Below are positions 41,686-42,946 of a stretch of DNA of 64,000 nucleotides, in pieces (the stretch's first letter is position 1; each line of letters starts with the position of its first letter). The position numbers were made by a program, and so were the translations under genes. This stretch comes from Tahibacter aquaticus. GTDB lineage: Bacteria > Pseudomonadota > Gammaproteobacteria > Xanthomonadales > Rhodanobacteraceae. The notes under the pieces were generated by a model that was given only the letters and a program-made list of their open reading frames with translations, did no database searches and was not told the origin of the DNA. The stretch covers positions 124,001-188,000 of the forward strand of contig NZ_SNZH01000006.1 of the NCBI RefSeq assembly GCF_004363655.1, read 5' to 3'.

Positions 41686-41761
<76 letters not shown>

Positions 41762-41770
41762 CGATTTCCA

Positions 41771-41802
41771 CAAAACCTCGGTAAGCCGAGGTTTTGTTTT
41801 TT
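41771..41802 (+). terminator. Intrinsic terminator between tRNA-Gly and tRNA-Cys
   Basis: An 11-bp perfect stem (41771-41781 CAAAACCTCGG with 41786-41796) and TAAG loop are followed by six T. It sits ten bases after the first tRNA-Gly, so the tRNA genes beyond it may rely on readthrough or their own promoter. Confidence 0.9.
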
Positions 41803-41846
41803 CGGGAGACGCTGCGATGTGCAGCGATGGCCCGGATACGAAAACT

Positions 41847-41920
41847 GGCCTGGTGGCAGAGTGGTCATGCAGCGGCCTGCAAAGCCGTGTACGCCGGTTC
41901 GATTCCGACCCAGGCCTCCA
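41847..41920 (+). tRNA. cysT: tRNA-Cys (GCA)
   Basis: A 74-nt tRNA: acceptor GGCCTGG pairs with CCAGGCC, the discriminator is T, and CCA is encoded. The anticodon GCA at 41879-41881 lies in a CGGCC...AGCCG-type stem-loop. It occupies the conserved position between tRNA-Gly and tRNA-Leu downstream of uvrC-pgsA. Confidence 0.95.
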
Positions 41921-41941
41921 GTTTTCGGCAATACAGACAAT

Positions 41942-42017
<76 letters not shown>

Positions 42018-42024
42018 GATTCGC

Positions 42025-42052
42025 AAAAAGCTCCGCAGTGCGGGGCTTTTTT
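42025..42052 (+). terminator. Intrinsic terminator after second tRNA-Gly
   Basis: Stem AAAAAGCTCCGC / GCGGGGCTTTTT (42025-42036 with 42040-42051, one G-U pair) with loop AGT, ending in a T-run. It closes the Gly-Cys-Gly tRNA unit. Confidence 0.85.
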
Positions 42053-42123
42053 GTTGCGCGCGATTCGCACATGCGTTGGCCGCGCAGCCCCGATGCCTGG
42101 GCAGACGCAACTACCGCGTCAGC

Positions 42124-42636
42124 ATGAAAGAATCCAACCTTGCTGTTGCTCAAGAGTTCGCTCGCGAGTGGTACATGCCTCGCTACGCTGGCGAACGCCA
42201 TCCGGCCCCACCTTCCGCGATGCCGCCGAAGCATTCCTTACTGAGTACGGCATCATCACCGAAGGTGAGCGCAACGCTGCCTACGTCGCCGACAAAGGGC
42301 GACACGTAAAGAATCACTGCTCCCTTTCTTCGGCGACGGCCCAATTACAGAAGTAAGTGCTGATCGCAGCGTTGTCCTGCGTACAGCCTGCGCCACACCT
42401 GCATCGGCATGCGACTGATGGAAGGTGCGGACATTTACCAGATTGCGAAGAAATGCCGTGCCGGCGTCGAGATGATCGAGAAGCACTACGCGGCGTACAT
42501 CAAGAACACGCTCGATGCGGCAGCGATCAATGTGCGCAAGCCGAAACCGGCCAGCAAGGCTGCGGCCAACAAGGCGATCAAGCGTCGGAATGCCTGGCAT
42601 TCTTGCCGCTTGGCAGGCGAATTCCTGGTGCTATAG
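42124..42636 (+). pseudogene. Decayed tyrosine recombinase (phage/island integrase)
   Basis: Pieces of a tyrosine integrase lie in different frames. Around 42220-42320 one frame reads FRDAAEAFLTEYGIITEGER and then AAYVADKGRHVKNH. After a shift near 42318 another reads LLPFFGDGPITEVSA, the SAM-like N-terminal domain. The catalytic core is then missing, and the C-terminal part resumes near 42395 with LRHTCIGMRLMEGADIYQIA (the second Arg box) and VEMIEKHYAAYIKNTLDAAA, where HYA carries the Tyr. Frameshift and internal deletion make it non-functional. Its place beside tRNA-Gly marks an old integration event. Confidence 0.8.
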
Positions 42637-42653
42637 TGCCGCCGGTTGGTAGC

Positions 42654-42946
42654 GCGGGCGTGGCGAAATCGGTAGACGCAACGGACTTGAATCAACTTGA
42701 GTGCCCCGGTGGGAAACCCCGGGTGCAGAACTGCTCAAAGTCGGGGAAACCTTTCAACTGGCAATCCCGAGCCAAGCCCGGAGACGGGAAGGTGTAGAGA
42801 CTAGACGGGCAGCACCTACGGCGAGAGCTACGGTGAAGGGATAGTCCAGACCACAAACGCCTTCGCGGGCGGCGGCGAAAGCCGTAGCTGGTATGAAAAT
42901 CCGTCAGGCTTGTCCTATGGGGGTTCGAGTCCCCCCGCCCGCACCA
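42654..42946 (+). tRNA. leuZ: tRNA-Leu (UAA) interrupted by a group I intron
   Basis: The 5' exon (42654-42688) starts GCGGGCGTGGCGAAATCGGT, typical of tRNA-Leu, and ends in ACGGACTT. The 3' exon (42896-42946) begins AAAATCCGT and ends CGCCCGCACCA. Joined, they give an 86-nt tRNA: a 7-bp acceptor stem GCGGGCG/CGCCCGC, an ACGGA/TCCGT anticodon stem with loop CTTAAAA (anticodon UAA), a long variable arm and an encoded CCA. The position after uvrC-pgsA-Gly-Cys is that of E. coli leuZ, which supports UAA. Read without splicing, the loop would give a nonsensical anticodon. Confidence 0.93.
42689..42895 (+). ncRNA. Group I intron (IC3-like, Azoarcus type) in tRNA-Leu
   Basis: A 207-nt intron inserted between U34 and A35. 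The 5' exon end ACUU pairs with the internal guide GAGU (42698-42702 region), leaving the U-G pair at the splice site. The intron ends in G (42895). A GGAAA-capped hairpin (P2) lies near 42704-42722. The core holds GGTGTAGAGACTAGACGG, closely matching the Azoarcus tRNA-Ile intron, with P7 strands AGACTA (42798-42803) and TAGTCC (42842-42847) and a GTGAAGG block between them. No ORF is inside. It is expected to self-splice. Confidence 0.92.

What the first reader, a model, noticed from the sequence alone, without database searches (positions are those of the whole stretch)
42654..42946. Group I intron inside tRNA-Leu(UAA) of a gammaproteobacterium-like genome
The tRNA-Leu gene is split between U34 and A35 by a 207-nt ORF-less intron. 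Its core (GGTGTAGAGACTAGACGG, ATAGTCC) closely resembles the Azoarcus tRNA-Ile intron. The insertion point is the one used by the cyanobacterial/plastid tRNA-Leu(UAA) intron. Known proteobacterial tRNA introns sit in tRNA-Ile(CAU) or tRNA-Arg(CCU), to my knowledge. A tRNA-Leu(UAA) case in this lineage would suggest either transfer of the cyanobacterial position or independent insertion at the same site. Two further points make it notable: the essential leuZ gene depends on splicing, and the tRNA is downstream of uvrC-pgsA-Gly-Cys.
Basis: partly seen in the sequence, partly recalled or inferred. Interest (0 to 1): 0.88.

Follow-up and report, generated by a model that had tools for sequence, protein, structure and literature searches.

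The report
tRNA-leucine gene with ribozyme intron
The only tRNA gene found in this bacterium for the leucine codon UUA is split by a small RNA that very probably cuts itself out, a kind already known from other bacteria; here the whole split gene looks as if it came from a distant class of bacteria and took the place of the native gene.

Summary
tRNA-Leu(UAA) at 42654-42946 is split between U34 and A35 by a 207-nt intron (42689-42895). Rfam's group I model matches it at E 1.3e-11, though 1.1 bits under the curated cut-off. P1-P9, including the P3/P7 pseudoknot, is strongly supported by covariation in 51 aligned introns. It is the only tRNA-Leu(UAA) found in the genome.

The claim that this is new for the lineage fails: a held paper reports group I introns in tRNA-Leu(UAA) of other Gammaproteobacteria.

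The better story is transfer of the whole gene. Intron and exons both look alphaproteobacterial (exons 92% to Sphingobium). Four of eight same-genus genomes keep a different, intronless tRNA-Leu(UAA). The intron tree alone does not prove the donor. Relatives of this split gene sit on phages and on resistance plasmids; 635 of 5426 complete E. coli genomes hold a match to the plasmid type. Descent from the cyanobacterial intron was not tested. Splicing is inferred, not shown.

The parts
42654..42688 (+). 5' exon of tRNA-Leu(UAA), ending with U34 of the anticodon
   Evidence: splice scan; recount
42689..42895 (+). group I intron, 207 nt, ends in G
   Evidence: RF00028 E 1.3e-11; covariation
42685..42702 (+). 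P1: 42685-42688 (exon) with 42699-42702, U.G at the 5' splice site
   Evidence: U.G in 51 of 51 aligned introns; helix 94.1% paired
42731..42812 (+). P3: 42731-42736 with 42807-42812 (pseudoknot with P7)
   Evidence: 100% paired, 4 of 6 pairs change on both sides
42741..42770 (+). P4: 42741-42745 with 42766-42770, and P5 inside it
   Evidence: 100% paired
42771..42793 (+). P6: 42771-42773 with 42791-42793, and P6a inside it
   Evidence: 100% and 96.5% paired
42799..42846 (+). P7 (guanosine site): 42799-42803 with 42842-42846
   Evidence: 100% paired, 3 of 5 pairs change on both sides
42813..42835 (+). P8: 42813-42816 with 42832-42835
   Evidence: 100% paired
42850..42892 (+). P9.0: 42850-42853 with 42889-42892, enclosing P9 and P9b
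   Evidence: 96.1% paired
42896..42946 (+). 3' exon, A35 to the encoded CCA
42629..42653 (+). stretch before the gene shared with the same-genus copy in G006 (GCTATAGTGCCGCC), possible promoter
   Evidence: blastn match from 42629, 88.9% over 126; promoter role inferred
41686..42017 (+). tRNA-Gly, tRNA-Cys, tRNA-Gly: the conserved neighbours of the native intronless gene in G001

Best explanation
A group I intron, of the small ORF-less type found in bacterial tRNAs, interrupts the only tRNA-Leu(UAA) gene found. The precursor folds into P1-P9; a guanosine bound in P7 would attack after U34, the freed U34 end would attack after the terminal G, and the exons would be joined into a normal tRNA-Leu(UAA) (mechanism from established group I biochemistry; not shown here). 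The gene, exons and intron together, entered an ancestor of this lineage from an alphaproteobacterium or a vector carrying such a gene, and the native intronless gene beside tRNA-Gly was lost. Shown: sequence, junction, conserved structure, single copy, intronless allele in the same genus. Inferred: splicing, direction and donor of transfer, loss of the native gene after arrival.
For: Structure and junction. Single copy: 46 of 46 tRNAs read. Exons: 92% to the intron-bearing Sphingobium cupriresistens gene, 86.5% to Sphingomonas canadensis, 78% to the intronless gene of same-genus G001; acceptor GCGGGCG in 18 of 29 alphaproteobacterial intron-bearing Leu(UAA) genes, 0 of 12 gammaproteobacterial and 0 of 7 betaproteobacterial ones, 0 of 19 other fetched Lysobacterales ones, 0 of 16 intronless ones of the order. 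Intron: nearest 88% Bradyrhizobium plasmid, other near rows Alphaproteobacteria. Same genus, 8 genomes: G001, G004, G005, G007 hold the intronless gene, G002 another intron type, G000 and G006 the alphaproteobacterial-type copy, G003 (87% complete) none found. In G001 the order Gly-Cys-Gly-Leu is the same but without intron.
Against: The intron tree places the window with no starred support: the window, G006 and five Bradyrhizobium-like rows are together in the best tree at 18/34. Holding window and G006 with the 28-row Lysobacterales/beta clade is only just rejected (AU p 0.042), holding them with a smaller gammaproteobacterial set is not (p 0.197), and the groups were named after the tree was seen. 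One intronless gene of the family reaches 81% exon identity, so only the 92% match and the acceptor stem discriminate well. Rfam score is under the gathering score. No integrase or island is shown: integrase-like pieces upstream have no Pfam or PHROGs match. Not all G006 tRNAs were read.
Confidence: 0.75

Rival explanations
1. Vertical: the intron is an old resident of tRNA-Leu(UAA) in Lysobacterales, lost in relatives, and the tRNA body drifted.
For: Many genomes of the order carry Leu(UAA) introns (31 of 398 match the window query at E<=1e-10), some beside tRNA-Gly and tRNA-Cys (L007, L011).
Against: Those introns form a 28-row clade (99/99) with betaproteobacterial rows that excludes the window; their exons start GCCCGAG, not GCGGGCG; AU p 0.042 against joining.
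Confidence: 0.12
2. Intron-only invasion: the ribozyme inserted by reverse splicing or homing into a resident tRNA-Leu(UAA).
For: Closely related introns sit in other tRNAs, such as Leu(CAA), Lys(UUU), Thr(UGU), Ser(UGA), so introns do change genes.
Against: Here acceptor stem, variable arm and T arm differ from the resident gene of the genus as well, and match an intron-bearing alphaproteobacterial gene.
Confidence: 0.09
3. Direct descent from the cyanobacterial/plastid tRNA-Leu(UAA) intron.
For: Same tRNA and same junction (position in cyanobacteria by recall and PMC4033280 passages).
Against: Nearest relatives found are proteobacterial; no cyanobacterial intron was compared, so this is untested, and it does not exclude the alphaproteobacterial route as the last step.
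Confidence: 0.04
4. Dead gene: the copy is never spliced and UUA is read in another way.
For: UUA is rare: 1 TTA in 2661 codons of six window ORFs.
Against: Exons make a full tRNA with CCA, the catalytic helices are intact, no other tRNA-Leu(UAA) was found.
Confidence: 0.03

Closest known systems
Group I introns in tRNA-Leu-TAA and tRNA-Arg-TCT of Beggiatoaceae (PMC4853749, passages, citing MacGregor 2013)
   Same: Gammaproteobacteria, tRNA-Leu(UAA) interrupted by a putative group I intron
   Different: Structure and junction were not determined there; other family; no transfer of the whole gene argued in the passages seen
[quoted passage not shown] 2002; recalled, not held)
   Same: By recall: same tRNA, gammaproteobacterium
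   Different: Not seen, so not compared
Azoarcus tRNA-Ile(CAU) intron
   Same: Core motifs GGTGTAGAGACTAGACGG and ATAGTCC (by recall); small and ORF-less
   Different: Other tRNA, junction after the anticodon (recalled; the CAU loci show it)
Cyanobacterial and plastid tRNA-Leu(UAA) intron
   Same: Same tRNA and anticodon-loop position (recall; PMC4033280 passages)
   Different: Ancestral and mostly vertical there by that paper; not compared by sequence here
Recombination of the entire tRNA-Leu(UAA) locus with its intron in cyanobacteria (Rudi et al. 2002; only the title seen in a reference list; not held)
   Same: Whole intron-bearing tRNA-Leu(UAA) locus moving
   Different: Within cyanobacteria by title; here between classes
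Intron-bearing tRNA-Leu(UAA) beside aac(3)-IId on enterobacterial plasmids (L003, L004)
   Same: Same tRNA, junction and intron family; 74% over the whole length
   Different: Nearest row is Enterovirga (99/85), not the window's neighbours; an additional plasmid copy

Membership tests
Group I intron (RF00028) | covariance model match | tested here: inconclusive
   E 1.3e-11 but 48.9 bits against a gathering score of 50
Group I intron (RF00028) | P3-P7 pseudoknotted core with P4-P6 and P8 | tested here: met
   P3, P4, P5, P6, P7, P8 all 100% paired in 51 introns, with changes on both sides in each of these helices
Group I intron (RF00028) | U.G pair at the 5' splice site | tested here: met
   U.G in 51 of 51; the splice scan required the U, so the U part is by construction
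Group I intron (RF00028) | terminal G of the intron | tested here: met
   G at 42895, invariant in A1; required by the scan that chose the members
Group I intron (RF00028) | guanosine-initiated self-splicing | not testable with these tools
   needs RNA
Subgroup IC3 | subgroup features of the core | not tested
   assignment by recall of Azoarcus-like motifs only
Cyanobacterial tRNA-Leu(UAA) intron lineage | insertion at U34^A35 of tRNA-Leu(UAA) | tested here: met
   cyanobacterial position recalled
Cyanobacterial tRNA-Leu(UAA) intron lineage | common descent | not tested
   no cyanobacterial intron fetched
Azoarcus tRNA-Ile(CAU) intron lineage | host gene tRNA-Ile(CAU), junction after the anticodon | tested here: not met
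   Leu(UAA), U34^A35; CAU rows fall in a separate clade (99)

The most novel reading that the evidence does not exclude
Intron-bearing tRNA-Leu(UAA) genes travel as ready-made units, tRNA plus its own ribozyme, between classes of bacteria, on plasmids and phages as well as chromosomes, and can take over as the only tRNA-Leu(UAA) of a cell. The window is a takeover from an alphaproteobacterium-like source; the copy beside aac(3)-IId in enterobacterial plasmids is a second, separate export from Alphaproteobacteria; phages such as Agrobacterium phage Atu_ph07 are possible carriers. That would answer how introns without a homing endonuclease spread.
Probability: 0.5. Interest if true: 0.65.

Novelty: new member of a known kind. 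Interest (0 to 1): 0.45.

Why it matters
An essential decoding step in this bacterium would rest on a ribozyme that arrived with its tRNA from another class. If the carriers are phages and plasmids, the old puzzle of how tRNA introns without an endonuclease spread becomes testable. Practically, standard tRNA finders miss such genes: ARAGORN missed this one, and the places seen in E. coli records and plasmid records carry no annotation (12 and 8 rows shown).

Tried and rejected
Novelty as 'first tRNA-Leu(UAA) intron in Gammaproteobacteria': rejected.

Genomic island with an integrase as the vehicle: pieces between 42019 and 42620 look by eye like a decayed tyrosine recombinase, but Pfam and PHROGs gave no match and no further copy of the tRNA-Gly 3' end lies in the window. 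In G006 the same gene lies about 15 kb downstream of Gly-Cys-Gly on the same strand with other genes between, no second att-like copy. Dropped.

Homing endonuclease beside viral intron-bearing tRNAs: HNH in 4 of 40 near ORFs (two of the four under the Pfam cut-off) against 0 of 30 far ORFs (40 of 51 near and 30 of 69 far ORFs were given); not significant, kept as a hint. L229 also has an HNH ORF near its tRNA but was not in that set.

The intron protecting tRNA genes from integrases: integrase ORFs lie within 400 bases of intron-bearing tRNAs in L221, L263, L264, L267 (4 of 40 near, 0 of 30 far), so at least some integrases neighbour such genes; no support.

First AU test (22 rows, p 3.7e-6) set aside, because the rows held together are interleaved with betaproteobacterial rows; one search was run instead with weaker results.

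Isotypes with junctions outside 34^35 or 36^37 are probably misreadings; 16 of 119 genome and 12 of 119 viral loci gave no tRNA. L014-L016, L181, L339, L340 were read with a short loop and are taken as Leu(CAA) by eye. Rows dropped before the tree: 241 rows to 234 by score, length and junction, 234 to 165 by clustering, which lost the 484-nt G006 copy; it was put back.

MFE folding was uninformative (z -1.63). The 14 of 30 RF00028 loci without a tRNA lay on the minus strand, which that script did not scan.

Full report
What is there. The gene runs from 42654 to 42946: 5' exon to 42688, intron 42689-42895 (207 nt, first base G, last base G), 3' exon with encoded CCA. Spliced, it is tRNA-Leu with anticodon UAA. 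ARAGORN does not see it unspliced and RF00028 misses its gathering score by 1.1 bits, but the E-value is 1.3e-11 and the match is the only one in the 7.27-Mb draft genome at E<=0.001. Among junctions with U before and G at the end, the best tRNA is Leu(TAA) at 122.6, the next 118.0; without the G rule two shifted junctions tie. Sixty random places gave no tRNA.

Structure. I wrote P1-P9b for the window and counted it on 51 Leu(UAA) introns, the window, two plasmid introns and 48 genome-contig introns chosen from 61 refs by leaving out ten long or divergent rows. Of 2657 cells 96.5% pair; 33 of 53 pairs change on both sides; covariation score 0.330, shuffled 0.111 (sd 0.005), slid at most 0.057. 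P3 and P7 are 100% paired with changes on both sides. Less good helices are P2 (88.8%) and the inner part of P8 (83.7%). The 5' splice U.G holds in 51 of 51, but the U was required when the introns were collected.

Copy number. RF00005 finds 46 tRNAs; all 46 were fetched and read. Leu anticodons: TAG, CAA, GAG, CAG. UUA can, by the standard decoding rules, only be read by UAA. Demand is low: 1 TTA in 2661 codons of six window ORFs.

Neighbours. Order is uvrC, pgsA, Gly, Cys, Gly, Leu. Same-genus G001 has Gly-Cys-Gly-Leu(TAA) with no intron, about 100 bases after the second Gly; in the window about 640 bases lie between. Of eight genomes of the genus, G001, G004, G005 and G007 match the G001 gene over its full 87 bases at 92-100%; G000 and G006 match only over 31 bases of the 5' exon, apart from a G006 tRNA that is Leu(CAA); G002 matches in part and carries another intron type; G003 has no match and is 87% complete. 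G006 carries a copy with exons 98.8% identical to the window's and a 484-nt intron with two inserts, about 15 kb downstream of its own Gly-Cys-Gly on the same strand. I read the two as one event in a common ancestor; that is inference.

Where it came from. Exons: 92% Sphingobium cupriresistens, 86.5% Sphingomonas canadensis, both intron-bearing; 78% the G001 gene; best intronless gene of the order 81%. Acceptor GCGGGCG: 18 of 29 alphaproteobacterial, 0 of 12 gamma, 0 of 7 beta, 0 of 19 other fetched Lysobacterales intron-bearing genes, 0 of 16 intronless ones. Intron: 88% to the Bradyrhizobium plasmid intron; nearest rows by path are alphaproteobacterial; other Lysobacterales introns form a 28-row clade with betaproteobacterial rows at 99/99. 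Limits: the window's own position has no starred support; with G006 and five Bradyrhizobium-like rows it stands at 18/34; AU p against the 28-row clade 0.042, against a small gammaproteobacterial set 0.197. So 'not the usual Lysobacterales intron' is fairly firm, 'alphaproteobacterial donor' is likely, the exact donor open.

How widespread. A pattern of the core was scanned in genome contigs; the scan stopped at 119 stretches, so this is a sample. Of 119: Leu(UAA) at 34^35 60, Arg(CCU) 14, CAU 11, no tRNA 16, the rest few each. Hosts of the Leu(UAA) rows are mainly Alpha-, Gamma- and Betaproteobacteria, with Bacteroidota and Acidobacteriota (many are metagenome bins). In viral contigs, again stopped at 119: Leu(UAA) 81, none 12; some of these are prophage borders where the tRNA may be the host's (L263, L267, with an integrase beside it). 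Clearer phage cases are Gordonia phage Daredevil (tRNA-Lys(UUU), 238 nt), Agrobacterium phage Atu_ph07 (Leu(UAA), 278 nt) and the 735-kb uncultured phage LR756501 (Leu(UAA), 205 nt). L258 has phage tail genes and its exons, not its intron, match cyanophages with an annotated tRNA-Leu such as S-TIM5: an allele pair with and without intron.

Plasmids. 1272 plasmid records match the window gene, nearly all at about 74%. In the two records opened the gene lies near aac(3)-IId. The plasmid type is in 635 of 5426 complete E. coli genomes, 624 with at least 80% of the query, 656 of 658 records at 99% or more. Its intron groups with Enterovirga (Alphaproteobacteria), 99/85.

Print. Seen as passages: PMC4853749, PMC3984707 (in 2014 it says that phage introns known to date sit in protein-coding genes), PMC4033280, PMC8450103, PMC11835236, PMC6293099. 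The Atu_ph07 paper PMC6102473 reports 33 tRNAs and its main text does not contain the word intron; the huge-phage paper PMC7162821 has no match for intron or group I. Listings 47 and 69 showed no paper on group I introns in phage tRNAs, but only open-licence papers are held. A search with the resistance gene's name failed and was not repeated, so I make no claim on whether the plasmid copy is in print.

Verdict. A new member of a known kind, mechanistically ordinary, with an interesting history. The broader reading, that such split tRNA genes move as units on phages and plasmids, is not excluded and is worth a dedicated survey.

Noticed in passing
L003:4001-4298, L004:4001-4297: Intron-bearing tRNA-Leu(UAA) near aac(3)-IId on enterobacterial plasmids; matches in 635 of 5426 complete E. 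coli genomes (81 chromosomal, 589 plasmid places), no annotation in the 12 rows shown.
   Followed up: partly
   Followed up: partly
L014, L015, L016, L339, L340, L181: Introns of the same family apparently in tRNA-Leu(CAA), where the base before the intron would be C34, so a C:G instead of a U.G pair at the 5' splice site (read by eye).
   Followed up: no
L182-L211: RF00028 matches in 54 of 233 genomes of the family (a lower bound: G002, G006, G029, G011 carry introns but were missed); 16 of 30 loci scanned on one strand are a CAU tRNA split after the anticodon.
   Followed up: partly
L060, G006:C79:90381-90949: The same-genus copy has a 484-nt intron with two extra stretches, at about P5 and P8.
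   Followed up: no
L263, L267: Integrase and a carbon-nitrogen hydrolase ORF flank an intron-bearing tRNA-Leu(UAA): looks like a prophage integrated beside the split tRNA.
   Followed up: no
42019-42620: Pieces between tRNA-Gly and this gene that look by eye like a decayed tyrosine recombinase; no Pfam or PHROGs match.
   Followed up: yes
L348:1-3000, L017: Intron of the family in tRNA-Arg(UCU), 34^35 (L348, score 122.7); L017 looks alike by eye.
   Followed up: no
L104, L105, L264: tRNA-Lys(UUU) introns of two Actinomycetota genomes and Gordonia phage Daredevil group together (98): a host-phage pair.
   Followed up: no
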